DNA of 64,000 bases. Origin: Vicinamibacterales bacterium (lineage in GTDB: Bacteria; Acidobacteriota; Vicinamibacteria; Vicinamibacterales; Fen-181). Positions 45,281 to 60,949 of this stretch are shown in pieces (within the stretch, counting starts at the first letter, position 1; every line of letters starts with the position of its first letter). The notes under the pieces were generated by a model. It did no database searches. It had not been told where the DNA came from and saw only the letters and a list, made by a program, of their open reading frames with translations. The stretch lies in the NCBI GenBank assembly GCA_036504215.1, contig DASXVO010000016.1, positions 64,001 to 128,000 of the forward strand, given 5' to 3'. The position numbers were made by a program, and so were the translations under genes.

Positions 45281-46636
45281 CTAGAGCCACCCCGAAATCT
45301 TGTCACGGATCGTTTCCGCCAGTTCGCGGGCCGCGGTTTCACTCGTCGACTCGGCCACCACCCGCATCACGGGCTCGGTATTCGAGCCGCGCAGCAGGAA
45401 CCAGGCGTCAGGAAGCATCACCTTGACACCGTCGCGCAGATCCATCGGGCGGTCGCCGAACTCGCGACGCGCCTTCCGGAGGATCTCACCGAGGCGTTGC
45501 GACGGGAACGGAAACTGGATCTTGGCGATCTCGAACGCCGGGAGGCTGGCCACGAGGTCCGATACGGTCCGCCCGGAGTCGGTGAGCCTGTGCAGGATCA
45601 GGCCCATGCCGACCAGGCTGTCGCGCGCGAAGTTGATCCGCGGATAGATGACGCCGCCGTTACCTTCGCCGCCAACGACGGCGCGATGCCGTTGCATGCC
45701 TTCGGTGACATTGGCTTCGCCGACCGGCGTGCGAAACACGGAACAGCCGAAGCGCTGCGCCACCGGCTCGAGCGCATGCGTGGTCGCAAGATTCGCGACG
45801 ACCGGACCAGGCGTTCGCCCCAACACATGCTCGACGGCCAGCACCAGCGTTCGTTCCTCGCCGATCGGCTCACCGCGTTCGGAGACGATCGCGAGGCGGT
45901 CGGCGTCCATATCCTGGGCGAAGCCGATGTCCGCCCGATGCTCCCGGACCGCCGCGCAAAGCGCCTCCAGGTTCTCGGGGGTCGGTTCGGCAGGCCTCGG
46001 GAACCGTCCATCCGGCGTCACGTTGATGCCGATGACATCGACGCCCAGCGCCTCCAGCAGGCGAGGCCCGACGAGCGACCCGGCGCCATTGCACGAGTCC
46101 AGCACCACCCGCAGGCGACGGCCCGTCTGCGGCAGCGGCCCAACCGCGTCCATCACGGCCTCGATGTGCACGTCCAGGGCCCCGGGCATGGGCTCCACCG
46201 CACGCAGTCTCATCGCGCGAGCCTTCGTGTACTCACCCTGATGGTAGATGCCCAGCAACTCGCGGCCGCGGGCCCCGCTGAGGAACAGCGCATCCGGCCC
46301 GATGAACTTCAGCGCGTTCCACTCGGGCGGGTTGTGGCTGGCCGTGATCGCGATGCCGCCCTGCGCGCGGAGCCGGCGCACCAGCAACTGCACGGTCGGC
46401 GTCGGACAGACGCCGGCATCCACGATCCGGCACCCGGAGGACAACAGTCCGGACACGACGGCCTGCCGAACCATTTCTCCCGACGTCCGCGTGTCGCGGC
46501 CAACAACCACGCGGCCGGATCCCATGTAGGTGCCGAACGCCTGGGCAAACCGCGTGAGCAGGTCCGGCGTCAGTGAGTCGCCGATCACGCCCCGCACGCC
46601 AGAAATGCTGATCTTCAGCGTTGGAATCGCTCGCAT
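45281..46636 (-). CDS. glmM: Phosphoglucosamine mutase/phosphomannomutase (GlmM-like)
   Basis: A 451-residue phosphohexomutase of four domains. The start at 46636 gives the family opening ISISGVRGVIGDSLTPD. It has the phosphoserine loop TASHNPPEWN with S100, the magnesium loop DMDADR, the sugar-binding GGEGNGG and the phosphate-binding RGSNTEPVMRV at the C-terminus, so all catalytic elements are intact. GlmM interconverts glucosamine-6-P and glucosamine-1-P for peptidoglycan; phosphomannomutase or phosphoglucomutase activity is an alternative. It lies 17 bp after a close paralogue in the same operon. Confidence 0.85.
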   Translation of the reverse strand: MRAIPTLKISISGVRGVIGDSLTPDLLTRFAQAFGTYMGSGRVVVGRDTRTSGEMVRQAVVSGLLSSGCRIVDAGVCPTPTVQLLVRRLRAQGGIAITASHNPPEWNALKFIGPDALFLSGARGRELLGIYHQGEYTKARAMRLRAVEPMPGALDVHIEAVMDAVGPLPQTGRRLRVVLDSCNGAGSLVGPRLLEALGVDVIGINVTPDGRFPRPAEPTPENLEALCAAVREHRADIGFAQDMDADRLAIVSERGEPIGEERTLVLAVEHVLGRTPGPVVANLATTHALEPVAQRFGCSVFRTPVGEANVTEGMQRHRAVVGGEGNGGVIYPRINFARDSLVGMGLILHRLTDSGRTVSDLVASLPAFEIAKIQFPFPSQRLGEILRKARREFGDRPMDLRDGVKVMLPDAWFLLRGSNTEPVMRVVAESTSETAARELAETIRDKISGWL

Positions 46637-46653
46637 AGCGGGTTTCTCGCGTG

Positions 46654-48003
46654 CTACCGCCTCAGGCGGTCCCTCGCCCAGTCCATCAGGTCGCCGGCCC
46701 GGCCGGCCGCGTCGGCCTCCACGATCACGCGGATCATCGACTCGGTGTTCGATGCGCGCACGTGCACCCACCCGTCCGGGAAACAGACCTTCACGCCATC
46801 CGACAGATCGATCTCGGTGCCGGGTTCGTCCTGGACACTGTCGCGGAACTCCTGCAGGGCCGTGTAGATCACGCTCGGCTCGATCGCGACGTGCTCCTTG
46901 ATCATCGCCAACTGCGGGAGGTCGGCCATCAGCGCCGACAGTGGCGAGGACGACTCGGCGAGATACGACAGGATGAGGCCTGTCGCCGCCGCACTGTCGT
47001 GCGACGCCTGCACGCGGGGCACTGCCACGGCGCCGTTTCCTTCGCCGCCGATCACCGCACCGTGTTCGACGATCGCCTCGGAGATGTGCGCCTGCCCGAC
47101 CGGAGTGCGGATGACCTGCGCCCGGTAGCGCGCGGCAATCCGGTCGACCGCCATGGTGGTCGAGACGTTCGTCACGACCGGCCCGACGCGCTGTCGTAGG
47201 GCGATGTCGGTCGCCAGCACCAGCGTCAGTTCCTCGGACAGTGCGCGCCCGGTCTCGTCCACCAGGCCGAGCCGTTCTCCGTCGGCGTCGTACACGAGCC
47301 CCAGGTCGGCGTGCCCCGCCTTCACCAGCGCACGCACCTGCCCCATCGTATCCGGCCGCGGTTCCGGCGTGTGCGGGAACGGACTGGCGGGATCATCGTT
47401 GATCGCCAGCACCTCGCAACCCATGTCGGCCAGCCACCTCGGCGCGAGCAGCGAGCACGAGCCGTTGCAGCAATCGACGGCCACCCTGAGCCGTCGCGCT
47501 CGGAGTGTTGCCAGGTTGAAGCTCGCCGTTAACACGTCCAGATGATGCTGGACCGCTTCGCCGGACTCGACACGCGTCCGGATCTGGTCCCACGTGGCCT
47601 TCTCGAAGCGGCCCTGATGGTAGATGTCGAGCAACTCCTCCGCCTGGCCGGGCATGAGGTAGAGCCCGTCGCGGCGGACGAACTTGAGCGCGTTCCATTG
47701 GGCGGGGTTGTGGCCGGCGGTGATCGAGATCCCGCCCTGCGCCTCGAGCCACGTGATCGCCAACTGGAGGCTTGGCGTCGGACACACACCGAGATCGATT
47801 ACGTCGCAGCCGGTGGCCAGCAGGCCGGCCATCACGGCCGACGCCACCATCGGGCCGGACGGCCGGGTATCGCGGCAGACGAGGATGCGGCCCGGGCCGA
47901 GGTAGGTACCGAAGGCCTGCGCGAATCCGACGACGAGATCGGGGGTGAGCGTCTCGCCGACGACGCCGCGCACGCCGCTGACGCCTATCTTGAGTGGCTT
48001 CAT
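46654..48003 (-). CDS. Phosphohexomutase paralogue with Ser-to-Gly in the catalytic loop
   Basis: A 449-residue protein homologous throughout to the downstream GlmM-like protein (KIGVSGVRGVVGETLTPD at the start, RASNTESMIRV at the end). The catalytic phosphoserine loop reads TAGHNPAQWN, so the nucleophile position is G97; the codon is clearly GGC. The metal loop DADGERLG and sugar loop GGEGNGA are kept. Either it has lost mutase activity or works differently, for example as a sugar-phosphate-binding regulator. Related GHNP-type proteins may exist elsewhere. It follows the SYLF gene by 10 bp. Confidence 0.85.
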   Translation of the reverse strand: MKPLKIGVSGVRGVVGETLTPDLVVGFAQAFGTYLGPGRILVCRDTRPSGPMVASAVMAGLLATGCDVIDLGVCPTPSLQLAITWLEAQGGISITAGHNPAQWNALKFVRRDGLYLMPGQAEELLDIYHQGRFEKATWDQIRTRVESGEAVQHHLDVLTASFNLATLRARRLRVAVDCCNGSCSLLAPRWLADMGCEVLAINDDPASPFPHTPEPRPDTMGQVRALVKAGHADLGLVYDADGERLGLVDETGRALSEELTLVLATDIALRQRVGPVVTNVSTTMAVDRIAARYRAQVIRTPVGQAHISEAIVEHGAVIGGEGNGAVAVPRVQASHDSAAATGLILSYLAESSSPLSALMADLPQLAMIKEHVAIEPSVIYTALQEFRDSVQDEPGTEIDLSDGVKVCFPDGWVHVRASNTESMIRVIVEADAAGRAGDLMDWARDRLRR

Positions 48004-48013
48004 CACCCTGCTG

Positions 48014-48715
48014 CTATCCGCCGTAGTCGGCGAGCACCTTGCGCAGACGGGCCACCGACGCGGGGAGGTCGGGCTTCGACGACAACTGGTCGATGACTTC
48101 CCGGCTCCCGAGCCGCTCGCCGTAGAACCGTTCGTTGGCGTCGCGGTCGGCCCCGAGGTTCGAACCATTGATCGCCACGCCCGCGAACAGGCCGCGGCTG
48201 CGCGAATAGCTGAGAATCTTCGCGCGCATCTGGATGTCGGTTGCCGCCTCCAGTGACCGCCCTACCGGGCCGGCCGCCACCGACGCCTCGCCACCAATCT
48301 TGAACTCGTTGCTCAGCAGTCGCTGCAGTCCGACACGGTCGATGACGATGAGCACGAGGTCGATCGACTGCGCACCGACCTGCGCGCCGAAGCTCCCTCC
48401 TGCAATCGTGATGAAGGCCGGCGCCGACCAAGTGTTGGTCTTGCGGTCGCGGGCCGAGATGACCCCGCGGCCCCACTGCCCGCCGACGGCGAAGCTCGCC
48501 CTGAGCACGCCGGGGAAAATGACGACCGCTTCCGCCTTCTGGAGCACGCCTTGCGGAATGCCGCCATCGGGAGCCTGCATGATCTCGGTGAACACCGTCG
48601 CCGCGTCTTCCACCCGCGCCTGCTCAGACCGTTGCGCCGAGACGAGCGGACTGATGGCCAGGAGCAGCAACGCAGCAACGATTCCGACTAGCACCACATG
48701 CGACTGGGTACGCAC
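48014..48715 (-). CDS. Exported SYLF-domain (YSC84-like) protein
   Basis: A 233-residue protein with signal peptide (VVLVGIVAALLLLAISPLVSA) and an SYLF lipid-binding domain: AEAVVIFPGVLRASFAVGGQWGRGV, SAPAFITIAGGSFGAQVGAQSIDLVLIV (long block; the central GGSFG is diagnostic), then SYSRSRGLFAGVAINGS. Likely periplasmic and membrane-associated. Start is GTG with AAAGGAGGG upstream. It heads the operon that continues with the two phosphohexomutases. Confidence 0.9.
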   Translation of the reverse strand: MRTQSHVVLVGIVAALLLLAISPLVSAQRSEQARVEDAATVFTEIMQAPDGGIPQGVLQKAEAVVIFPGVLRASFAVGGQWGRGVISARDRKTNTWSAPAFITIAGGSFGAQVGAQSIDLVLIVIDRVGLQRLLSNEFKIGGEASVAAGPVGRSLEAATDIQMRAKILSYSRSRGLFAGVAINGSNLGADRDANERFYGERLGSREVIDQLSSKPDLPASVARLRKVLADYGG

Positions 48716-48835: not shown

Positions 48836-50170
48836 TCAATGCGACAACGGCATGGCTGCGGGACCAGGGCGAGTCGTCAGGAACGCAGCCCGTGCGGATG
48901 ACTCGGGGAACGCGGCACGGTGGCCGCTCTCCCATCGACGGGCGAAGTCGGCAACCAGGCCCTCGGCGACGAGCGCCCAGACGCTCCCGCCAAACCCGGC
49001 GCCGAATGCCGAGGCCGCCACGGCGCCCAACTCGCGCGCCGACCGCGCCAGCGCGATGGTCTCCGGTACCTGGTTGCGCAGCGCACGCTCGGCCAGATCC
49101 TGGGACCGATCGACGAGCGCACCGAAACGGTCGAGGTCGCCGGCGTCGAGCGCTTCGGTGGCGGCAGGGATGATCTGTTCGCTCTCCGCGACGAACTGAT
49201 CGAGGCGATCGACCAGCGCGTCGGTCGAGAAGCCGTCCACGGAGGTCCGTCGAAGCACGTCACGCACCGCCTCGGCCCCGGCCACCCTGACCGCGTCCGC
49301 CAGCGATGCATCCTGGCGGCCGGATGCCGAGCGCCACACATCGAGAACGGCGCGGACAGCGAGTGACGCACGGTTGTACGCGTCGCGCGCGCCCCCGGTC
49401 TTCTCCGCCATCACGCCACTCATCGCCACGACGAATCGATGCCTCGCAGGCCACTCAATCTGGCGTTCGTGCCGAACGGGACAGAATGCGTAGACGCTCA
49501 GTTGGTCGGCACGGCAGCAGAGCATCGCGGTGTGATCCTCACTCCCACCGAACGTGCCCACACCGCGATCTCCGGTCAACGCCCCGAAGCTCTGACCGTT
49601 TTCCACAGTAGCCAGATAGCCAGACAGGGCCTCGGCGCCGTGCACCTCGCGGACAAAGGAGTCCGCCGACCAGAGGTCGTTGATCTCGGCGATCGCCAGG
49701 AACATCGCCACCATGAAGGCACTCGAACTGCTCATGCCGGACGCGAGCGGGAGGTTGCTGAGAAACGCGATGTCCGCGCCCTGGCGGGCGTCCGGAAAAT
49801 TTCGGGACAGCCGGCGCAGCACCGTCCACGGGTAGCGCGCCCACGACTCGGCGGGCTGGCCCAGCTGTTCATCCAGGCTCAGACGCGCCTCCCGTCCGCG
49901 CGCCACGTCGAACACTCGCACGCCACTGTCGCGGCGCGGCGCCGCCGCGACGACGAAGCCCTGCTCCACCGCGCAGACCAGGCTGCGTCCTCCCGCGTAG
50001 TCCGTGTGCTTCCCGAGCACCTCGATCCGCCCGGGCACCCAGAAGGCCGCCGCCGGCTTGCCCGCGCCAGCGTCCACGAGTGCTGCCCGCACCAGCCGCG
50101 CCTGGCCGTCGACCACCCGGCCGTGTGCCGCCTGCAGACGGCCAGGGGCCAGACGGAATGCCCTCGTCAC
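48836..50170 (-). CDS. GHMP sugar kinase, galactokinase-like
   Basis: A 444-residue cytoplasmic kinase. VPGRIEVLGKHTDYAGG (from about residue 45) is the galactokinase-type substrate motif, but with Lys where classical galactokinases have Glu (GEHTDY). The ATP-binding loop is PLASGMSSSSAF, and GTFGGSEDHTAML is the downstream family block. It phosphorylates a hexose, probably galactose, at C1; the Lys variant leaves room for another sugar. The GTG start overlaps the stop of the nucleotidyltransferase gene (GTGA), so the sugar-1-phosphate it makes may be that enzyme's substrate. Confidence 0.85.
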   Translation of the reverse strand: MTRAFRLAPGRLQAAHGRVVDGQARLVRAALVDAGAGKPAAAFWVPGRIEVLGKHTDYAGGRSLVCAVEQGFVVAAAPRRDSGVRVFDVARGREARLSLDEQLGQPAESWARYPWTVLRRLSRNFPDARQGADIAFLSNLPLASGMSSSSAFMVAMFLAIAEINDLWSADSFVREVHGAEALSGYLATVENGQSFGALTGDRGVGTFGGSEDHTAMLCCRADQLSVYAFCPVRHERQIEWPARHRFVVAMSGVMAEKTGGARDAYNRASLAVRAVLDVWRSASGRQDASLADAVRVAGAEAVRDVLRRTSVDGFSTDALVDRLDQFVAESEQIIPAATEALDAGDLDRFGALVDRSQDLAERALRNQVPETIALARSARELGAVAASAFGAGFGGSVWALVAEGLVADFARRWESGHRAAFPESSARAAFLTTRPGPAAMPLSH

Positions 50171-51000
50171 AACCGCACCTCCACCCGCTCGAGCCGGCTG
50201 GCCACCGACAAAATGTCGCCGCGCGTCGACAGGTCGAGCACGCCTGCCCTGACAGGCACGACACGAAACGCCGCCCCCAGACGCGTCATCGCGTATTTCA
50301 CGGCGTCGGCCAGCTCGAACTCGCCCCGCGGTGATCGCTCGATGCGTCGCGCCGCCTCGAAGATGACCGGGCCGAAGCGCCAGCAGTTCATGCTGATGAG
50401 CGCGTCCGGGCCGACGCGCGACCAGGTGTCGGCGTCCGGCTTCTCGATGATGCCGCAGAGCATCCCGCCCGCGTCCACGTCGAGGACCGCATACTTCGCC
50501 ACCCGTGCGTCATCGACATTGCCATCGCGCACGAGCGCCGCGCGGTTGAAGCCGGCAAGCCCGGTGTGTCCCAGTCGGCGCACGGCGTCGAAGACGGACA
50601 CCGGATAGTAGTTGTCCGAGTTGATGACGAGGAACTGATCGCGCGCAGCAAACGATTCGGCCGCCGCCACGGCATTCGCCGTCCCAAGCGGCAGTTCCTG
50701 GATGGCGAAGTGCACGCGGATGCGCGTCGGCGTGACCTGGCGGGTGTAGTAGTCCCGAACGGTGTCGTGCTCGGGACCGATCACGAGGCATGCATCCGTG
50801 AATCCCGCGTCCGCCAACGCGCTCAACACATAGTCGAGAAACGGCCGACCGACCGGAATCATCGCTTTCATGCCGGCGTCCGCGGCCACGGCCTGGTTCT
50901 CGTCGATCACGGCGTCCTGCGCCGCGCGGCGCATGCGGGTGCCCAGCCCGCGCGCGAGGACGACCGCCTTGTCGATCACGTCCGCCGTTTCGTAGCCCAT
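50167..51000 (-). CDS. Sugar-1-phosphate nucleotidyltransferase
   Basis: A 277-residue Rossmann-like enzyme of the NTP_transferase family. Its start ALARGLGTRM-type loop (VVLARGLGTRMRR) binds the nucleotide, LVINSDNYYP holds the metal-binding Asp, and EKPDADTW is the second substrate-binding block. It makes an NDP-sugar from a sugar-1-phosphate. It is sandwiched between the histidine kinase gene, whose stop overlaps its ATG as TGATG, and the galactokinase-like gene. NTP and sugar identity cannot be read. Confidence 0.85.
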   Translation of the reverse strand: MGYETADVIDKAVVLARGLGTRMRRAAQDAVIDENQAVAADAGMKAMIPVGRPFLDYVLSALADAGFTDACLVIGPEHDTVRDYYTRQVTPTRIRVHFAIQELPLGTANAVAAAESFAARDQFLVINSDNYYPVSVFDAVRRLGHTGLAGFNRAALVRDGNVDDARVAKYAVLDVDAGGMLCGIIEKPDADTWSRVGPDALISMNCWRFGPVIFEAARRIERSPRGEFELADAVKYAMTRLGAAFRVVPVRAGVLDLSTRGDILSVASRLERVEVRL

Positions 51001-53258
51001 CACTCCGCACCCGTCACGGCCTCGACCTGCGCAGCCCCGTCGTCGGGTTCCGGGCCGCCGAATCCTGCGCCGGGGGCCGACACGAGCTGTCGCACGACCT
51101 CGACCAGGTCGCGCATCGCAAACGGCTTCTGCAGCAGGACCGGGTCGGCGTCCGCGACCTTCAAGTCGCCCAGCGTATCCGGCGCGTAGCCCGAGATGAA
51201 GAGCACGCGCATCTCCGGACGCTCGGGCAGGAGCCGGATGGCCAGTTCACGGCCATTGAGGCCCGGCATGACGACGTCGGTCAGGAGCACATCAATCCGC
51301 CCATCGTGCCGGGCAGCCATGTCCAACGCCGCGCGCCCGTCGGCTGCCTCGAGGACGACGAAACCGTCCCGTTCCAGGCACGACTTGATGAGTCGCCGCA
51401 GTCCGCGCTCGTCTTCCGCAAGGAGCACGGTCGCGCTCCGCTCCACCGCTGCCGCCGGACGCAGGGGCTCGACGGCAGTCGGCGCGTCCCGGCGTGGGAA
51501 CAACAGGTGAACGGTCGTGCCTCTCCCCTTCTCACTCTCCACGTGCACATGACCCTCAGACCGCATGGCAATCCCGTACACCAGCGAGAGTCCGAGACCG
51601 CGATGCTGGTCGCGCGAGCGGGTCGTGAAGAACGGCTCGAACAGATGCGCCTGCACCTCGTCGTCCATCCCAGTGCCAGTATCGGCCACTCGGATCTCGA
51701 CGTACGACCCAGGAGGCGCGGTCCCGATCCGCTCGGATCCACCGGCACCGATCTCCACCGCGCGAGTCATGATCGTGAGGACGCCACCCTCGGGCATCGC
51801 CTCCTTCGCGTTGGCCGCGAGATTGATGAGGGCGCGCTCCAACTGGTTCGGGTCGGCCATCAGCCACGCGTCTGGCGCGCCGGGCACCACCTTCACCGTG
51901 ACGTGGCTTCCGGCCAGGCGCCGCAGCAGCGGTTCGCTGCCGGCGATCGCGCGGTCGAGATCGAGCAAGCGACCCCGGTTCGCCTGCCGTTGACTGAATA
52001 TGGTGAGCTGACGCGTCACGGCCGCCGCACGCTCGCCGGCCTGCCGGATCTGCTCCACGGCGTCCGAGACACCCTCGTCCAGCGTTCGCTGCCCCATCAG
52101 CAACTCCGCGTAGCCGAGGATCACCGACAGCAGATTGTTGAAGTCGTGCGCCACTCCGCCGGCCAGCCGGCCGAGCGCTTCCATCTTGCGTGACTGCTGG
52201 AGCTGGTCCCGGGCGACGTTCAGGTCCGTTCGCACTTCGCGGTACCGGCGGTCCAGGAGCAGGTGGTGCCCAATCGCGAGCGCACCCAGCACCAGCATCG
52301 ATCCGAGCACAACCGCTTCGCGGTAGCGATCCGCCGCCGGGTCCAGCAGACCAGCCAGACGGCCCGCCAGGTGCAGCACCGGCAGTGCAAACGCGTACGG
52401 CAGCAGTGATGCGAGAATATTTCGACCCCGAAGGCGGTCGGAATCGTCGCCGGACAGGTGGAGATTGTGACGAGAGCCGACCTCGTCGGGCGGGCCGCCG
52501 GGCAGCCGTGCGACAATCACATACAGCACGAACTGCGCCGCCCAGACGATGTCCGAGATGTCTCCGGACTGCGGCTTGACGCCGCGGAAGTACGAGAACC
52601 ACTCGATCCCGTCGGACACGAGCGTGATGGCGAACGACGCGACGACCGTCGCGTAGATCACGCGCCAGGGTCCGCGCCCGGCCGTGCGAACGAGCCAGCC
52701 AAATCTCGCCAGCAGCACGACGTCGAGCGTCACGAACAGGGCCAGCGACGGCACCGACGTCGCGTAGACGCTCGGAATCACACGGGCCGGAATCAGGATG
52801 AAATACGCGAGGAGACCAAACGCAAACACCGCCGCGCCCGCCCACTCGACCGCCACCCGCCACGACACGGGCTCGGTTTCTGCCGCCGCATGAGCCCTCA
52901 GGTCGCTTGCGAGAATGAAGGCGAGATAGAAGAGCAGGAATGCGCAGTCGGTGACCAGAACGAGGCCCCCGCTCCAACTGGATTCGGGGACCGACACGTT
53001 GAGCAGCACGACCGCGCCCCAGGACGAGAGGCCGGCGGCGATGAGCGTGCGAAAGCGGCGCCCAGCTACCGTGGACTCTCGCCCGACCGCCCGCCAGGCG
53101 GCGTAGAGCGCGAGGCCCATTGTGGGAACGTCGGACCAGGTCGCGAGAAACGCCTTCAGCGGGTCCGACGACGACGCGATCAGGTACACACCCGCAATGC
53201 ACAGGAAGCACGCGACGGAGAGAATGCAGATGGGATCTCGGCGAAGGGACGCTGGCAT
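51000..53258 (-). CDS. Hybrid membrane histidine kinase with C-terminal receiver domain
   Basis: A 752-residue sensor protein. The N-terminal third has about 7 to 8 hydrophobic helices (IAGVYLIASS onwards), then a dimerisation/phosphoacceptor helix with RKMEALGRLAGGVAHDFNNL, the HATPase region (NLAANAKEAMPEGG, DTGTGMDDEV, GLGLSLVYGI) and a receiver domain beginning VLLAEDERGLRR, with the phosphoryl Asp in VLLTDVVMPG and Lys in LQKPF. I put the start at 53258; the open frame further upstream is antisense to the histone-like gene. The signal is unknown. It is translationally coupled to the nucleotidyltransferase. Confidence 0.88.
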   Translation of the reverse strand: MPASLRRDPICILSVACFLCIAGVYLIASSSDPLKAFLATWSDVPTMGLALYAAWRAVGRESTVAGRRFRTLIAAGLSSWGAVVLLNVSVPESSWSGGLVLVTDCAFLLFYLAFILASDLRAHAAAETEPVSWRVAVEWAGAAVFAFGLLAYFILIPARVIPSVYATSVPSLALFVTLDVVLLARFGWLVRTAGRGPWRVIYATVVASFAITLVSDGIEWFSYFRGVKPQSGDISDIVWAAQFVLYVIVARLPGGPPDEVGSRHNLHLSGDDSDRLRGRNILASLLPYAFALPVLHLAGRLAGLLDPAADRYREAVVLGSMLVLGALAIGHHLLLDRRYREVRTDLNVARDQLQQSRKMEALGRLAGGVAHDFNNLLSVILGYAELLMGQRTLDEGVSDAVEQIRQAGERAAAVTRQLTIFSQRQANRGRLLDLDRAIAGSEPLLRRLAGSHVTVKVVPGAPDAWLMADPNQLERALINLAANAKEAMPEGGVLTIMTRAVEIGAGGSERIGTAPPGSYVEIRVADTGTGMDDEVQAHLFEPFFTTRSRDQHRGLGLSLVYGIAMRSEGHVHVESEKGRGTTVHLLFPRRDAPTAVEPLRPAAAVERSATVLLAEDERGLRRLIKSCLERDGFVVLEAADGRAALDMAARHDGRIDVLLTDVVMPGLNGRELAIRLLPERPEMRVLFISGYAPDTLGDLKVADADPVLLQKPFAMRDLVEVVRQLVSAPGAGFGGPEPDDGAAQVEAVTGAE

Positions 53259-53329: not shown

Positions 53330-53379
53330 CGCGCCGGCCACGCGGCCATGACACATCTTCGGCGTTGAAGGAGGCACAG

Positions 53380-53763
53380 ATGGCGAAGAAGGCGACAGGG
53401 AAGTCATCCGGGACCCCGAAACGGCGAGCCCCCAAGAAGAAGGCGGCCCCCAAGAAGGCGGCTCCCAAGAAGGTCACGAAGAAGCCGGCCGTCAAGAGGG
53501 TGGCCAAGAAGGCATCTCCCAAGAAGGCGGCCAAGAAGGCCGTGAAGAAGGCGGTCGCGAAGAAGCCGGCCGTGAAGAAGCCGGCGCCGAAGAAGCCGGT
53601 CGCGAAGAAGCCGGCGCCGAAGAAGAAGGTCCAGCGCAAGGCCGCTCCGAGTCCCGTTCCCCCGGCTCCGGTCGTCGAGGTGGCAGCACCCGCGCCGGCC
53701 CCGGCACCCGAACCGGCAGCCGTCGTCGCGGAACCCGCGGCACCTCCGGCGGTCGTCAGCTAG
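53380..53763 (+). CDS. Lysine/alanine/proline-rich histone H1-like DNA-binding protein
   Basis: A 127-residue basic protein composed of KKPA/KKAA-type repeats (for example AVKKAVAKKPAVKKPAPKKP) from about residue 14 to 85, then an acid/proline-rich tail (VPPAPVVEVAAPAPAPAPEP). The composition matches H1-like and AlgP-like bacterial proteins that bind and compact DNA non-specifically. Lysine is encoded almost only by AAG, so the DNA is itself repetitive. The protein is likely nucleoid-associated. It has its own strong promoter and ribosome binding site. Confidence 0.88.
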   Translation: MAKKATGKSSGTPKRRAPKKKAAPKKAAPKKVTKKPAVKRVAKKASPKKAAKKAVKKAVAKKPAVKKPAPKKPVAKKPAPKKKVQRKAAPSPVPPAPVVEVAAPAPAPAPEPAAVVAEPAAPPAVVS

Positions 53764-53868: not shown

Positions 53869-54933
53869 ATGCCCACCTCACTGGCTTCGCTCGTCCGCCT
53901 GGCGCTCTCCGGCGGCCCCGGTTCGGTCCGCGCCGCCGCGCGCCTGATGTCGGTTGTGGCCGATCAGCCGCAGCGCCTGCCGGAGGTGTACCAGGCCACG
54001 GCCGGCCTCGACGGCGGCGAGGCCGCCAGCGTCGGACTCCTCCCCCGCCTGCTCGTCGGCATCACCGGAGCCCCAGGGGCCGGCAAGAGCACCCTGACCG
54101 ATGCCCTGATCCGTGAGTACCGTTCCCGCCTGCCCGACCGGCGCATTGGCGTGGTCGCCGTGGACCCGTCGTCACCGTTCACCGGGGGAGCCGTGCTGGG
54201 TGACCGCGTTCGCATGATGCGCCATGCCATCGACCCGATGGTATTCGTCCGCTCGATGGCCTCCCGAGGCCACCTGGGCGGTCTGGCGCTCGGCGTCAAG
54301 GGCGTCGTCAGAATCATGGCGCTCCTCGGATGCGACGTCGTGATCATCGAGACGGTCGGCGTGGGCCAGAGCGAGGTCGAGGTCGCGGGCGTGGCCGATG
54401 TCGTCATGATCGTGCTCGCCCCGGGCCAGGGCGACAGCATCCAACTCCTCAAGGCCGGGCTGATGGAAATCGGCGACGTGTTCGTGGTGAACAAGGCGGA
54501 CCGACCGGACGCGCACCGCCTGCACACGGAACTCCTGGCCACGCTGCGCATCGTGCAGGACACCGCTTCTCCACGGCTCACCCGGCGCCCCGGCCTGGGG
54601 ACCGATCCGCCGACGTTCCTGGTCAGCGCGGAGGTCGGTCGAGGCGTCGAGGAACTGGTCGATGGGCTGGAGCGCCTCGCCGCCGAACACTCCCCGGCCT
54701 GGCAGCAACACCGCCTGGACACGGTTGCGCAGGACGTTCGGGATGCTGTCCTCGAAGAGGCGACGCGTCGCATCCAAGGGACGCTCGGCCGCCTCGACGA
54801 CGAGGGCCACGCCGTGGCGTCGATTCTGGCGGGAGACCTCACCGTCGGCCAGTTGACCGATCGGCTCCTGGCGGAGACGGTGAGGCGGAGACAGGTGGAA
54901 ACCGACGCCGCGCGCGAACCGCCGCGCGACTAG
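53869..54933 (+). CDS. meaB: Methylmalonyl-CoA mutase-associated GTPase MeaB
   Basis: A 354-residue G3E-type GTPase that loads and protects the B12 cofactor of methylmalonyl-CoA mutase. Walker A GAPGAGKST, switch regions (VDPSSPFTGGAVLGDRVRM is the family block), ETVGVGQSEVEV and NKAD are all present. The helical C-terminal dimerisation arm follows. The mutase itself is not in the window, but the gene faces a carboxylase gene that may make methylmalonyl-CoA, supporting a propionate pathway. Confidence 0.94.
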   Translation: MPTSLASLVRLALSGGPGSVRAAARLMSVVADQPQRLPEVYQATAGLDGGEAASVGLLPRLLVGITGAPGAGKSTLTDALIREYRSRLPDRRIGVVAVDPSSPFTGGAVLGDRVRMMRHAIDPMVFVRSMASRGHLGGLALGVKGVVRIMALLGCDVVIIETVGVGQSEVEVAGVADVVMIVLAPGQGDSIQLLKAGLMEIGDVFVVNKADRPDAHRLHTELLATLRIVQDTASPRLTRRPGLGTDPPTFLVSAEVGRGVEELVDGLERLAAEHSPAWQQHRLDTVAQDVRDAVLEEATRRIQGTLGRLDDEGHAVASILAGDLTVGQLTDRLLAETVRRRQVETDAAREPPRD

Positions 54934-54955
54934 AAGTGGGCGGTCCGGGTCGGAA

Positions 54956-57900
54956 CTACTTTCTTTCGAGCTCCTTGGCCATGCCGCGCTCAATTGCGTC
55001 GATGAGGTAAGGTCGAAGATCTGCGGCCCGGATAATCCGGTCGAGCGAGCCGACCTGCAGCGCGCGGTGTACGGAGTGGACGGCGTCGAACTCGTCGGCC
55101 ACCTGTCCCAGCTTTTCCGACCGCACCGAGCGGGTCACTTCGGACAGCTTCGATCGGATGGCAGCCTTGGCCGAATCCGACGCCTGCTCCAGTTCGCGCT
55201 GCAGCCCCTGCACGCGGGGGTCCTTCCGCGTCCGCGCATCGACCTCACGCGCGAACACGACGGCCGCAGCCGGCGCGCCCCCGATGACAGACGCGTACGT
55301 GCCCTCCAGCGCCACCACTTCCATGTTCTCGTTCAGGGTCTTCGAGAAGACGACGAACGCCCCGCCGTGATAGCGCGAGATGACGCAGAAGATGATCGGC
55401 CCCTTGAAGTTGACCACCGCGCGGCCGATCTCGGCACCCCATTCGAGCTGGCGTCGCCGCATCGACTCGGGCGACCCGTCGAAGCCGGAGAGATTCGCGA
55501 GGATGACCAGCGGTCGGACTCCGCTCGCGGTGTTGACGAACCGCGCGACCTTCTTCGAGGCCATCGGGAACAGCGTACCGGACGTGAATTGCTCCGGACC
55601 ATCCGGCGGAACGATGCCGACGCGCGGCACCGCGCGCGACTCGAACCCGAGCAGGGCGACCGGGTACCCCCCGATGTGCGCGTCCCATGTCACGGCGTTC
55701 TCGGCGTCGCGCATGTGTGGCCAGCGCTCGAGCGGTTCGTGGTCCTGATCGCTCGCCGCCCGCATCACCTTGCGGATGTCGAACGGCTTCTTGCGGCCCC
55801 GGTTCTTCTCGTCCGAGAAGATGTCGCCCACCGTCTCGAACCCGGTGCCCTGCACGTCACCGTGCGGATAGCTTCGGACATCGCGGGCAATTGGATCGCG
55901 CGTCACGGCCCGGCGCGGAAAGCGCTCGCCCGGTGCGACGTAGGTGTGGTCGTAGTGTCGCAGCAGGATCTGGCACGCCTCGCCGAGATCGCGGGCCCAG
56001 TACTGCGCCTGTCCGTTCGGGCCCATGATGTGCTCGTAGCCGCCGATGCCCTGGTTGTCCTCGGCCGACACCGACCCCGAATAGTCGAGCGCGGTCTTGC
56101 CCGTCAGCACCATCGCCCCCTCGGGCGTCATGATGAGGATCCCGCGCGTGTGCAGCAGCATCGTCGCCTCGGCGTTCCAGTAGGGCTGGCCGCCGACGTT
56201 GATGCCAATCACGATGATGTTGATCTCGTGGCCGGCCTGCGTGAACTCGATCAGGCGCCGCAGGACCATGGCGATCCAATCCATGTTCTCGGTGCCGCTC
56301 TCCATCGAGATCTTCGCGCCGGCCGACAGGGCGAACCATTCGAGCGGCACGCGCATCCGCTCCGCCATGTCGAGGGCCGCCAGGATGCGCGCGCACTCGG
56401 GTTCGGCCAGCGACCCGACTTCCTTGCTCGGGTCGCCCAGGATGATGACGCGGGTCATCCCATCCGGGTACTTTTCGGTCACGTTCTCGATCAGTCCGAC
56501 GACGACGTTCGCGGTGTTCTTGCCGTACGGCCGGTCGACCGGGACGAGCTGGCCGGTGGCGTCGAGGTCGTGTTCGACGAACTCACCCGGTGGCAGGTCC
56601 GCCTGCATCGCCTCGCGCGACGGCGTCAGCATGCGGATCAACTCGTACGGATACGTCAGGCCGCGCTGACGCATCCTCACGACCTTCTGGGCGTACTCGG
56701 TGAGCGGTCGAATCGGTTCTGCCGACGGCTCGTTGAACTGCAGCGCCATGGCCTGGCCCGCCGAGACCGACACCCGCAGCACGGTGTCGTGCGGCGTCCC
56801 GCCCTCGTCCGGAATCTGGGCGCGTACCACGACCTTCTGCAACCCCAACCCCTCGGCCTCGGATCCCATCCGACGCACGACCGCCTCGAGTTCCTCCTTC
56901 TTCAGCTGCAATGTCGGACGAACGTACAGCAGCACGCGGTTCCACTGCAGGCGGTCACCCGGCGCGCGCCGCAACTGCACGCGACGAAGCGCGTTCAACG
57001 CCTCCATCATCATCCGCTCGAGGTGCGGCACCTGCACCAGCCCGCCGTTGCCATCCCGGATGGCCGTGACATCACGCACTTCGGCAAGGGCGAAGAGTCG
57101 CTCGTCCTTCGGATTGTCGCGTGCGACGCCGTGGAAGAGGTACACGTCCTCGACCGACGGCAGCCGATCGACGAAGAAGTTGCGGAGTCTCCAGAGCTCG
57201 AGGCGCTTGGCCATCATCGGGTGCATGCCGCGGTAGAGCTTCTGCTCGCGGAAGCCCGCGGGGCCCGGGCGGAACGTGAAGTACTGCGTCTGGCCCGTGG
57301 CCGCCTGGACGCCGGGGCCGGACACCATGACGACCACGCGACGTACCGGGCGGTCGAACCGGGCCTGGTCGAGCAGCCCACGCAGTTCTTCGGACGCCGC
57401 GTCCGGATTGTCGAGAGCACCGCGGGTCCAGACATGCAGATCCACCACCACGTCGTGATCGCGCGGGAACGACAGCGCGACGCGCTGCACGGTCTCGAGC
57501 GCCCTCCGGGCGTCCGGGTCCACCGCGTGGGTCGCGATGACGTGGACCTGCTTGTGCTCGTGCGCATACTCCGCGACCGCCACGCTCCGCTCGCCCGTCT
57601 CGAGCGCCGTGAAGCTGGTGAATTCGCGGATGCGGTAGAAGCGCCGCGTCAGCACCTCGAGCATGACCTCGCGCACGACCGGCGGGGCTGCCTCGAACCG
57701 CACGGCAAACAACTCCTTCAGCGGCTGCGGACACTCGACGAGCGCCGCAATCCGCGCGCGCCGATCGGCTCCGAACGGATCCCGCGCCATCGTCGCCAGG
57801 TGCGCTTCCATCGTCGCGTAGATCGAACGGCGCGACTCCTCGAAGCCGGGGCGGTCGAACGCCCGGTAGCGGACATCGCGCGCGATATCGCTGACGCTCG

Positions 57901-60586
57901 GGTACCGCTGACGCGACACGGCAATCAGTCGATCGAGCAATCCGAGGAACCCCGGCACATCTGACGCGTCACTGCGCGCGAGGCGCTGCTCCAGCAGCGC
58001 GACGACGGCGTCGACCTGCAGGTCGACACGCCGGTGCGACTTGAACATCCACAGCAGACTCTCGCGAAGCGCAGGTGTGGGATCGAGCGAATCGATCCCG
58101 TAGTGCGCCAGCGCTCGCTGGAGCTTCTCGAGGAAGGACTTCGGCAGGTCCCCCCCGCGCGTCTCGAGCGTCCGCAAGTAGGTGAACAGATACTCCTCGG
58201 CGCTCAGCGAGCCGCCGGACTCGTTACGTTCGGGAGCGGTGTGCCGCGCGAACACGGCCGAGATGTCCACGAAGATCCGCAGCAGATCGTCCTCGGCCCG
58301 CCGGCGCCCCGGCTCGATGTCGTCGAGTGCCTGACACGCGCGGACGTACTCGCTGACCAGTCGCTTGGATTCGGCCGGATCCACGTCGAAGCCCAGCATC
58401 AGGCGGCGCAGGTTCTGCAGCGCGATTGGGGCCCGGTGAGCGGGTCCGCGCTTCAACTCGCCGAGGCCCGCCTTCACTCCCCGCAGGATGGCGCGGGTCC
58501 GGGACACGCGGCGCTCCTGCCGGTCGCGCGACAGCGCCACGCCTTCAAACGTCACCCGTGCACCGGCCCCATCCCCCGTCTTGGCGGCAGTCGCCGCATC
58601 CACGTGGACGAGCGGCCCGCCTGCGCCCACCTGCGCGTTGGCCATTACGAGCACCTGTCGGACCACGCCCGAAAACGGTGCGGTGACCGCCAACTCCATC
58701 TTCATCGACTCGAGCACGGCGAGCCGATCGCCGGCCGACACGTGGTCCCCCGGCTGCACGCTGACGGACACGACCATCGCCGGCCCCGGCGCCCGCACGA
58801 TCCCGGCGTCAGCACGTGAGATCCGGTGCGGCACACCATCCACCTCGACCAGGTGCGTGTAACCCTGCGCCACCGACAGCACGCGGTAGCGATGTTCGCC
58901 GTGCGTGATCCAGCGCTCACACGGACCGAGGCGTTCGACGTTCAGGTCGATGCGGGTGCCCGCCACGTCGATCCGATACTCCTGCACGCCCTGCCGGTAC
59001 ACCTTGAACTGGTAGCGGTGCCCGAGATACCCGACCTCCACCTGGCGGCCAACGTCCGGCCGGCAGCTCGGACGCATCTTCGCGGCACCGGAGAAGAACT
59101 CCTCCAACTCGCCACTCGCCTCGGTGTCGTAGACCTCGATGGCAGCCTGCAGCAGCGCGATCCCGGCGTTCTCCCCCGGTTCGAAGTCGGGGCGCGCGCT
59201 CGCACGATCGAGCCATCCCACGTCCACCCGTCCCGCCCGCACTTCCTCCCTGTCCAGCAGTTGCAGCATGAACGTGCGGTTCGTCGTCCCGCCCTTGATG
59301 GCAATGGCGCTCTCGGCCAGTGCGCGCTTCAACCGGCCCAGCGCTTCCTCGCGTGTATGGCCGACGGCCGAGAGCTTGGCGAACATCGAACCGAACTCGG
59401 CCGGAATGACATCGCCTTCGGCGACGCCCGAATCGACGCGGAGACCAGGGCCGGTCGGCAGGCGGAACAGCTCGATTTCGCCCGGCGCCGCCGCAAAGCC
59501 GGAGTCCACGTTCTCGGCGTTCAGACGCACCTCGATCGCGTGCCCTGTCGTCACCGGGGCCTGGCCTTCGAGATGGCCGCCGCGCGCCACGTGCAGCGAC
59601 AGCTTCACCAGATCCACGCCGGTCGTGTGCTCGGTCACCGGATGCTCGACCTGGAGCCGCGGGTTGACCTCCATCATGAAGAACTGTCGGGTGGACGGAT
59701 CGAAGAGGAATTCGACAGTCGCGGCGTCCTGGTAGTCGGCGGCACGGCAGAAGCGGATGGCCGCTTCCTTGATCGCCTCGTCCTCGCCGGGCAGCAGCGC
59801 CGGCGAGGGGGCCTCGGCCATCAGTTTCTGGAATCGCCGCTGGATGGTGCAGTCCCGCACGCCCACCGCCCAGATGGCACCGTATTGGTCGGCCTGGATC
59901 TGGACTTCGACGTGCCGGACGCCCTCCAGCCACCGCTCGACGAATACCGTCGAGTCGCCAAAGGTGCGACCGGCCTCCCGCCGCGCGCTGTCGAATGCCG
60001 CCGCCAGTCCCGCCTCGCTCCAGGCGCGCCTGATTCCCCGGCCGCCGGCACCCGCCGACGCCTTCACCACCACCGGGTACCCGAGCCGTTGCGCGTGCAC
60101 CCAGGCCACATCGAGCGTGGACGCGGCTTCCCCACCCCACGGCGTCACACGAAGACCCGCCTGCTCGGCCAGCCGTTTCCCGGAGATCTTGTCGCCCACC
60201 CGCCTGATGGCCAGGGCCGTCGGGCCGATGAACGTGATGCCGAGCCGATCGCAGAGCTCCACGAAATCGGCGCGCTCGGCCACGAATCCCCAGCCGGCCC
60301 ATACCGCGTCGGCCTGCACCGACACGAGGGCCTGCTCGAGCCGGGCGTAGTCGAGGTAGGTCGGCTTGCGCTGGCCGTCGGCCTCGTCCACGAACGTGGC
60401 GGGCCCCAGGTCGAACGACTCGTCCGCCTCGCGGACGAAACGCGCGCGTCGGTCGGGTTCGGTGAACAGGGCGATGGTGCTGATGCCCGTGCCCCGTTCC
60501 AGGTTGAACTCGCGGATCGCGTGGATGACGCGCATCGCCGGTTCGCCTCGATTGACAATGGCGACGCGCTGGAAGTCTGCGGACAT
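54956..60586 (-). CDS. Fused single-chain biotin-dependent acyl-CoA carboxylase of eukaryotic ACC type
   Basis: An 1876-residue enzyme joining all parts of an acyl-CoA carboxylase: biotin carboxylase (about 1-470; ASAGAGGRGIRRAWSE ATP loop, MEVNPRLQVEHPVTEH), biotinyl domain with ESMKM and biotinyl lysine K629, a helical central region (about 670-1290) as in eukaryotic ACC, and a carboxyltransferase with N and C lobes (about 1300-1876; GQPYWNAEATML, SVSAEDNQGIGGYEHI, SRYHGGAFVVFSK). It carboxylates acetyl-CoA or, given MeaB opposite, propionyl-CoA. The start at 60586 has GAGG six bases upstream. It is shorter than the roughly 2300-residue eukaryotic proteins. Confidence 0.88.
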   Translation of the reverse strand: MSADFQRVAIVNRGEPAMRVIHAIREFNLERGTGISTIALFTEPDRRARFVREADESFDLGPATFVDEADGQRKPTYLDYARLEQALVSVQADAVWAGWGFVAERADFVELCDRLGITFIGPTALAIRRVGDKISGKRLAEQAGLRVTPWGGEAASTLDVAWVHAQRLGYPVVVKASAGAGGRGIRRAWSEAGLAAAFDSARREAGRTFGDSTVFVERWLEGVRHVEVQIQADQYGAIWAVGVRDCTIQRRFQKLMAEAPSPALLPGEDEAIKEAAIRFCRAADYQDAATVEFLFDPSTRQFFMMEVNPRLQVEHPVTEHTTGVDLVKLSLHVARGGHLEGQAPVTTGHAIEVRLNAENVDSGFAAAPGEIELFRLPTGPGLRVDSGVAEGDVIPAEFGSMFAKLSAVGHTREEALGRLKRALAESAIAIKGGTTNRTFMLQLLDREEVRAGRVDVGWLDRASARPDFEPGENAGIALLQAAIEVYDTEASGELEEFFSGAAKMRPSCRPDVGRQVEVGYLGHRYQFKVYRQGVQEYRIDVAGTRIDLNVERLGPCERWITHGEHRYRVLSVAQGYTHLVEVDGVPHRISRADAGIVRAPGPAMVVSVSVQPGDHVSAGDRLAVLESMKMELAVTAPFSGVVRQVLVMANAQVGAGGPLVHVDAATAAKTGDGAGARVTFEGVALSRDRQERRVSRTRAILRGVKAGLGELKRGPAHRAPIALQNLRRLMLGFDVDPAESKRLVSEYVRACQALDDIEPGRRRAEDDLLRIFVDISAVFARHTAPERNESGGSLSAEEYLFTYLRTLETRGGDLPKSFLEKLQRALAHYGIDSLDPTPALRESLLWMFKSHRRVDLQVDAVVALLEQRLARSDASDVPGFLGLLDRLIAVSRQRYPSVSDIARDVRYRAFDRPGFEESRRSIYATMEAHLATMARDPFGADRRARIAALVECPQPLKELFAVRFEAAPPVVREVMLEVLTRRFYRIREFTSFTALETGERSVAVAEYAHEHKQVHVIATHAVDPDARRALETVQRVALSFPRDHDVVVDLHVWTRGALDNPDAASEELRGLLDQARFDRPVRRVVVMVSGPGVQAATGQTQYFTFRPGPAGFREQKLYRGMHPMMAKRLELWRLRNFFVDRLPSVEDVYLFHGVARDNPKDERLFALAEVRDVTAIRDGNGGLVQVPHLERMMMEALNALRRVQLRRAPGDRLQWNRVLLYVRPTLQLKKEELEAVVRRMGSEAEGLGLQKVVVRAQIPDEGGTPHDTVLRVSVSAGQAMALQFNEPSAEPIRPLTEYAQKVVRMRQRGLTYPYELIRMLTPSREAMQADLPPGEFVEHDLDATGQLVPVDRPYGKNTANVVVGLIENVTEKYPDGMTRVIILGDPSKEVGSLAEPECARILAALDMAERMRVPLEWFALSAGAKISMESGTENMDWIAMVLRRLIEFTQAGHEINIIVIGINVGGQPYWNAEATMLLHTRGILIMTPEGAMVLTGKTALDYSGSVSAEDNQGIGGYEHIMGPNGQAQYWARDLGEACQILLRHYDHTYVAPGERFPRRAVTRDPIARDVRSYPHGDVQGTGFETVGDIFSDEKNRGRKKPFDIRKVMRAASDQDHEPLERWPHMRDAENAVTWDAHIGGYPVALLGFESRAVPRVGIVPPDGPEQFTSGTLFPMASKKVARFVNTASGVRPLVILANLSGFDGSPESMRRRQLEWGAEIGRAVVNFKGPIIFCVISRYHGGAFVVFSKTLNENMEVVALEGTYASVIGGAPAAAVVFAREVDARTRKDPRVQGLQRELEQASDSAKAAIRSKLSEVTRSVRSEKLGQVADEFDAVHSVHRALQVGSLDRIIRAADLRPYLIDAIERGMAKELERK

Positions 60587-60949
60587 GAGGACCTCTGTAG
60601 GTATCAAGGTGATGACGGGTGCGGTCCCGCCCATCGTCTCGGCGCCACGCCGACGGCCCGACAAAGCCGTCAATTGTACCTCATTGAACGGTGAGACCGA
60701 CGCGGACGGCGAACACATGGCGAAGGCGTGGCGGACGGCCGCATCGGACCGGCGCAGGCCGTGGTGAGGATCGCCGGGCCGTGGAAACAGGCAGGCCCAC
60801 GACGCGTGCGCCACCATGCGCATTTCACGAGGCTGTCGCTACCTCATCTGTTCCGCACTTTGCACCTTCGCGAATCGGGCGGGCTGCGTTAGGATGAGGG
60901 TCGGCTCACGTCGAGCCCGGTCCAAGCCCAACACGCCGAGGATGGTTTC
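60587..60949. other. Divergent intergenic region, no gene seen
   Basis: This 363-bp spacer separates the carboxylase and UshA-like genes. A minus-strand TACAAT (60678-60673) could be the carboxylase -10 box, roughly 90 nt upstream of the start. No repeat, RNA gene or open reading frame with coding character was recognised. Confidence 0.6.

What the first reader, a model, noticed from the sequence alone, without database searches (positions are those of the whole stretch)
53869..60586. Eukaryote-type single-chain acyl-CoA carboxylase facing meaB
The 1876-residue protein has the order biotin carboxylase, biotinyl domain (K629), long central helical region and carboxyltransferase, the layout of eukaryotic cytosolic acetyl-CoA carboxylase, whereas most bacteria split these parts. 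MeaB opposite suggests a propionyl/methylmalonyl-CoA setting. It is a candidate for tracing the origin of the fused eukaryotic enzyme or for an independent fusion.
Basis: partly seen in the sequence, partly recalled or inferred. Interest (0 to 1): 0.55.

Follow-up and report, generated by a model that had tools for sequence, protein, structure and literature searches.

The report
Eukaryote-type single-chain acyl-CoA carboxylase in Acidobacteriota
This bacterium carries a one-piece fat-building enzyme of the same design as the eukaryotic one, a kind already described in actinobacteria, and its relatives often sit beside large fat-making enzymes and sometimes lose their own CO2-loading part.

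Summary
Window 54956-60586 (-) encodes an 1876-aa biotin carboxylase (BC) - BT - biotinyl (K629) - central - carboxyltransferase (CT) protein. Its central region is homologous to that of eukaryotic acetyl-CoA carboxylase (ACC) over its length: profile matches, and a predicted fold with Z 33.8 to human ACC1. The kind is in print: SACE_4237 of Saccharopolyspora erythraea is a homodimeric ACC with acetyl- and propionyl-CoA activity. The window protein is a new member from another phylum, and an extra enzyme: the genome also holds AccA, AccD-like and AccC-like proteins. The meaB neighbour is a weak clue: tail to tail, 22 bp between stops, pairing seen only in close kin, and the genome's mutase operon has its own MeaB. 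In trees the bacterial fused proteins form one clade and fungal ACC attaches outside it, so common ancestry is likelier than independent fusion; direction stays open (nesting with actinobacterial copies, AU p 0.062). New here: nine relatives abut a PfaA-like type I synthase, six of these with a phosphopantetheinyl transferase; one plasmid copy follows fungal-type FAS I and AcpS; five synthase-linked relatives lost most or all of BC (three losses by parsimony) but keep biotinyl domain and CT.

The parts
54956..60586 (-). Single-chain acyl-CoA carboxylase, 1876 aa
   Evidence: ORF and translation; Pfam domains; relatives
60592..60596 (-). Likely ribosome binding site AGAGG, 5 bases before the ATG
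   Evidence: sequence; inference
59207..60574 (-). Biotin carboxylase domain (residues 5-460), catalytic residues kept (position of E. coli H236 is F)
58817..59206 (-). BT-like linker (about residues 461-590); Pfam ACCA_BT only at E 0.086, below its cut-off
   Evidence: position by inference
58604..58789 (-). Biotinyl carrier domain (residues 600-661); K629 codon at 58700-58702
56552..58576 (-). Central domain region (residues 671-1345), eukaryotic ACC central-domain fold; Pfam ACC_central match at 56861-57355
54974..56464 (-). Carboxyltransferase domain (residues 1375-1871)
53869..54933 (+). Second MeaB-type GTPase, convergent neighbour, 22 bp between stop codons; probably not part of the same function

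Best explanation
It is a working homodimeric single-chain acyl-CoA carboxylase. BC uses ATP and bicarbonate to carboxylate biotin on K629; the biotinyl domain swings to CT, which passes the CO2 to acetyl-CoA (and probably propionyl-CoA), giving malonyl-CoA (methylmalonyl-CoA). The central domain is the non-catalytic scaffold that holds the two halves of the dimer. It belongs to the SACE_4237 family and is a second, extra carboxylase beside the usual split ACC of this genome. Shown here: domain order, conserved catalytic residues, homology and predicted fold of the central domain, other ACC subunits in the genome. Inferred: activity, substrates, dimer, and that it feeds a specialised lipid or polyketide demand rather than housekeeping synthesis.
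For: Domains in order, above Pfam cut-offs except BT. BC positions equal to E. coli K116, K159, H209, K238, E276, E288, N290, R292 and R338 kept (numbering recalled); H236 is F, but the M. smegmatis AccA3 chain printed also has F. K629 kept in all relatives that show the site in frame. Profile of 33 central+CT sequences: the 23 best PDB rows are all acetyl-CoA carboxylases. Predicted central domain, pLDDT 86.2, pTM 0.81: Foldseek ranks 1-31 are eukaryotic ACC; VIA-align Z 33.8 over 526 residues to human ACC1, 17 of 17 best rows ACC, next row Z 8.9. SACE_4237 is an active dimer on acetyl- and propionyl-CoA and inactive on palmitoyl-CoA (PMC6491548, parts 1-3 of 5 read). AccA at C27, AccD-like at C43, AccC-like at C6 in the own genome.
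Against: No assay. Redundancy with the split ACC leaves the role open. No type I synthase of the kind found beside relatives is in the own genome at E<=1e-40, so the demand it would serve is not identified. BCCP (AccB) and biotin ligase were not searched for. The CT pocket was not modelled; the residue after the GGA[FY] motif is V here and C or L in two own PccB-like proteins, so it does not settle substrate.
Confidence: 0.82

Rival explanations
1. It is the propionyl-CoA carboxylase of a methylmalonyl-CoA pathway, tied to the neighbouring meaB.
For: MeaB is adjacent in the window, G1192 and G1194 and about 3.7 kb away in G1196; SACE_4237 takes propionyl-CoA.
Against: Genes are tail to tail; in the own genome PccB, both mutase subunits and the better-scoring MeaB (350 against 231 bits) lie together on C86; no meaB turned up near the fused gene outside family f1 in the loci held.
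Confidence: 0.12
2. The eukaryote-like layout arose by an independent fusion in bacteria and only resembles eukaryotic ACC.
For: Fungal ACC sits on very long branches (1.91 in BC, 10 in CT), so its placement is fragile.
Against: A homologous central domain with no known split homologue, end to end by fold; BC shares AVWAGWG and PW[GS]G with the two fungal ACCs where four or more other BCs printed have H-PGYG and PG; C-lobe of CT is closer to yeast (29.1%) than to own PccB-like proteins (22.3 and 25.5%).
Confidence: 0.08
3. Eukaryotic ACC came from an actinobacterial member (Livieri et al. 2019).
For: Actinomycetota have the most members in the samples: 29 of 396 genomes, the centre included, against 10 of 396 in the own phylum. 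Holding euk + actinobacterial rows together is not rejected (p-AU 0.062, lnL 24.5 lower).
Against: In free trees fungal ACC attaches outside the bacterial clade (BC 100/98; CT 94/89); Acidobacteriota hold deep members too.
Confidence: 0.2

Closest known systems
SACE_4237 of Saccharopolyspora erythraea (homodimeric multidomain acyl-CoA carboxylase; PMC6491548)
   Same: Single chain, BC-BCCP-central-CT, about 200 kDa, homologous central region
   Different: Other phylum; here the split ACC is also present, whereas SACE_4237 is essential. SACE_4237's own sequence was not fetched; compared through actinobacterial relatives (44-51% identity over most of the chain)
Eukaryotic cytosolic ACC (yeast 5csk/5csl, human 8xkz)
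   Same: Domain order and central-domain fold
   Different: 1876 against about 2200-2400 aa; low identity (about 16-21% in the fold alignments)
Type R secondary lipid synthase cluster of Koribacter versatilis (PMC3098273)
   Same: PfaA homologue - ACC part - PPTase order, as in relatives of the window protein
   Different: Paper reports one genome and calls the gene part of the ACC complex; window gene has no such synthase beside it
[quoted passage not shown]
   Same: All three activities on one chain
   Different: No central region; domain order as told in PMC6491548 puts CT at the N side; homohexamer

Membership tests
Homodimeric multidomain ACC (SACE_4237 type) | BC-BCCP-central-CT on one chain of about 200 kDa | tested here: met
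Homodimeric multidomain ACC (SACE_4237 type) | CT and BC group with other bacterial fused proteins | tested here: met
Homodimeric multidomain ACC (SACE_4237 type) | Homodimer, active on acetyl- and propionyl-CoA | not testable with these tools
   needs purified protein
Eukaryotic cytosolic ACC | Central domain (Pfam ACC_central) between BCCP and CT | tested here: met
Eukaryotic cytosolic ACC | Branches among eukaryotic ACCs | tested here: not met
   sister position only, with two fungal rows
[quoted passage not shown]
   central region present
Split propionyl-CoA carboxylase | Separate alpha and beta subunits | tested here: not met
   one 1876-aa chain; own split copies lie elsewhere

The most novel reading that the evidence does not exclude
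Bacterial eukaryote-type ACCs are the malonyl-CoA modules of type I lipid megasynthases (PfaA-like type R synthases, once FAS I). In synthase-linked loci the BC half is dispensable and has been lost repeatedly, the biotinyl-central-CT remainder being loaded by a BC in trans or running the reverse or a transfer reaction. Eukaryotic ACC and type I FAS would then reflect an old bacterial partnership, and the window gene a copy freed from it (its family member G1197 still carries a frameshifted piece of the synthase upstream).
Probability: 0.25. Interest if true: 0.72.

Novelty: new member of a known kind. Interest (0 to 1): 0.42.

Why it matters
The origin of the eukaryotic one-chain ACC was left open in 2011 (PMC3199775, passages seen) and credited to Actinobacteria in 2019 (PMC6491548). 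Members with intact domains in Acidobacteriota, some as plasmid copies in Actinomycetota, widen the set for testing it. The link with type I synthases and the repeated loss of BC give a concrete, testable biochemical question: how does a carboxyltransferase with biotin but no biotin carboxylase work?

Tried and rejected
Checked and set aside. (1) MeaB as functional partner: convergent, kin-limited, better MeaB elsewhere. (2) A TAL-effector row (3ugm) topping the PDB search with the central region: weak scattered repeat matches of 1-7 bits, chance. (3) The D422-type residue as a substrate marker: own PccB-like proteins have C and L there, so it does not discriminate. (4) Synthase in the own genome: none at E<=1e-40 with the ACP-KR-DH query; 2 of 100 relatives (G054, G1205), both holding the fused gene, have a close one, 5 others only distant ones at 32-34%. 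(5) FAS I as a general neighbour: the Tsukamurella FAS I query found no close copy in the other loci held, only 26-34% matches in 4. (6) Phylogenetically independent pairs for synthase linkage against BC damage: only 3 pairs on supported branches, b agreeing in 1-2 and opposing in 0, so the sign test cannot reach significance. (7) Euk + actinobacterial nesting: not rejected, p-AU 0.062. (8) G397's phylum sample (20 of 296) overlaps the actinobacterial sample and is not counted again. (9) Papers: searches; I found no report of BC-less members or of the synthase link beyond Koribacter in those, which is no proof of absence (open-licence library only).

Rows dropped: from the 45-locus linkage table I left out loci with under 2.3 kb upstream or unreadable BC (L026, L060, L061, L063, L111, L120, L132), L147 (relic only, BC intact), L154 (G1202, broken into two frames, BC intact) and L155 (fragment, BC intact). 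The BC tree used 44 fused rows with at least 440 residues in the BC region, so the BC-deleted members are not in it.

Full report
What is there. Window 54956-60586 (-) is one open frame of 1876 residues with an ATG at 60586 and AGAGG five bases ahead. Pfam gives BC at 5-460, a biotinyl domain at 600-661, ACC_central at 1078-1242 (82.2 bits, cut-off 23.2) and carboxyltransferase at 1375-1871; the BT stretch is below threshold (E 0.086). K629 lies in ESMKMELA. The convergent meaB ends 22 bp from the carboxylase stop.

Is the central region really ACC-like? A single-sequence search of the PDB with residues 680-1330 gives eukaryotic ACC at E 1e-5 and weaker, below a chance TAL-effector row. A profile of 33 relatives over the later central part and CT gives 23 best rows, all acetyl-CoA carboxylase, best E 2.3e-40. 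For residues 671-1345 I predicted the fold from 46 relatives: pLDDT 86.2, pTM 0.81, a helical first half and an alpha/beta second half. Foldseek ranks 1-31 are eukaryotic ACC. VIA-align gives Z 33.8 over 526 residues (rmsd 4.8) to human ACC1, model range 32-642; the 17 best rows are ACC and the next row has Z 8.9. So the homology covers the whole central domain, not only the Pfam match.

What is known. Livieri et al. 2019 (PMC6491548; parts 1-3 of 5 of the text read) described SACE_4237 as the first bacterial homodimeric multidomain ACC: active as a dimer on acetyl- and propionyl-CoA, not on palmitoyl-CoA, essential for growth, with a eukaryote-like central region, and orthologues in many actinobacterial families. 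Lombard and Moreira 2011 (PMC3199775, passages) had left the origin of the eukaryotic enzyme open because its sequences are so divergent. The window protein is therefore a new member of a known kind.

Distribution. ACC_central was found in 10 of 396 genomes of the own phylum, the own genome included; in 29 of 396 of the phylum of Solirubrobacter soli, centre included; over the cut-off in 1 of 398 of the phylum of a Xanthomonadales MAG, that one being the centre itself; in none of the 14 control genomes. Searched with the whole protein, 14 of 100 relatives have a match beyond the BC domain (counted from best E-values). Among plasmid records, 5 of 1225 with a match cover at least 80% of the query, all Actinomycetota.

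The own genome. AccA (E 1.1e-123), an AccD-like 297-aa frame and an AccC-like frame on C6 are present, so the single-chain enzyme is an extra ACC. AccB was not searched for. On C86, PccB, two mutase subunits and MeaB (350 bits) follow one another, with a PYC_OADA carboxylase domain protein ahead. The window meaB is a second copy (231 bits).

Phylogeny. BC tree, 67 rows: 44 fused rows one clade (100/98), 21 other BCs one side (100/95), yeast and Chaetomium ACC between them on a 1.91 branch; the root is not inferred, so sisterhood to the fused clade follows only if the root lies among the other BCs. Shared letters point the same way: AVWAGWG and PW[GS]G in P0001 and both fungal ACCs, PGYG and PG in the other printed BCs. 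CT lobes, 34 rows: fused plus fungal apart from three own CTs (100/99), fused one clade at 94/89; branch lengths are extreme, so this is weak. Holding fungal ACC with 26 actinobacterial rows costs 24.5 log units, p-AU 0.062: not rejected. Within the fused family (52 rows, central+CT) P0001 groups with its genus (100/97), family and neighbours of the order (100/99, 99/95), and the Actinomycetota part is set apart at 96/95.

Synthase link in relatives. Nine loci (L027, L028, L055, L056, L057, L059, L121, L129, L131) have a PfaA-like type I synthase beside the carboxylase, at 48-56% or more to the L027 copy (L027 is the query itself). Domains in L027: KS, AT, ACP, KR, DH, best NCBIfam match omega_3_PfaA below its cut-off. 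A PPTase-like gene is found in six (L027, L028, L055, L057, L059, L121; Pfam ACPS shown for three). In G1197, of the window's own family, two pieces of the synthase's dehydratase lie upstream in different frames, a relic. The own genome lacks the synthase at 1e-40. Shulse and Allen 2011 (PMC3098273, passages) reported PfaA - ACC part - PPTase in Koribacter versatilis and its absence in four other type R clusters. In Tsukamurella tyrosinosolvens plasmid 10 the carboxylase follows a fungal-type FAS I (PF08354, E 8.7e-101) and a holo-ACP synthase. In Gordonia plasmid p174 there is no such neighbour.

Loss of BC. In L056, L057, L129 and L131 most of residues 146-223 (ATP-grasp) is deleted and the E-N-R motif is gone; L121 has no BC, its frame starting right behind the synthase. 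L059 has K116R, K238R, E276V and R292G; L055, L152 and L153 have R292W (E. coli numbering recalled). The biotinyl lysine and CT motifs are kept in all of these. Of 45 loci with enough flank and readable BC, gross loss is in 5 of 9 synthase-linked and 0 of 36 others (Fisher 1.0e-4); any catalytic change in 7 of 9 and 2 of 36 (2.6e-5). These rows are not independent: parsimony needs 3 losses, and a pair test has too few pairs to be significant.

Reading. The window protein is most likely a functional acetyl/propionyl-CoA carboxylase whose ancestors may have served a type I lipid synthase. How BC-less relatives get carboxybiotin is unknown; loading by AccC in trans is my first guess (inference).

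Noticed in passing
L056 5527-11007 (-), L057 6864-12284, L129 2334-8333, L131 4207-9840 (-), L121 6943-11196: Single-chain carboxylases that have lost most or all of the biotin carboxylase domain but keep biotinyl lysine and carboxyltransferase, all next to a PfaA-like type I synthase.
   Followed up: yes
L167 1-13451 (Tsukamurella tyrosinosolvens plasmid 10): FAS I - holo-ACP synthase - single-chain ACC in a row on a plasmid, resembling the eukaryotic cytosolic set.
   Followed up: partly
L147 7194-7882: Two pieces of a synthase dehydratase domain in different frames upstream of the carboxylase in the window's own family: relic of a lost synthase.
   Followed up: partly
L152 and L153 (both G1208): One genome holds two copies of the single-chain gene, both with R292W in the BC motif.
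   Followed up: no
L154 (G1202): The single-chain gene reads in two frames (BC half and later part), a frameshift, sequencing error or split.
   Followed up: no
window 53365-53763 (+): 132-aa lysine/alanine/proline-rich repeat protein (KKAAPKKAAPKK...), histone H1-like in look, just ahead of meaB.
   Followed up: no
window 45284-48168 (-): Two phosphoglucomutase/phosphomannomutase-type genes in a row, then a galactokinase-signature protein and a nucleotidyl transferase at 48839-51003: a sugar-nucleotide run.
   Followed up: no
PDB 9kkm_A (row 35): Title names an acetyl-CoA carboxyltransferase holoenzyme dimer of Shewanella oneidensis, perhaps another bacterial one-chain ACC; only the title was seen.
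   Followed up: no
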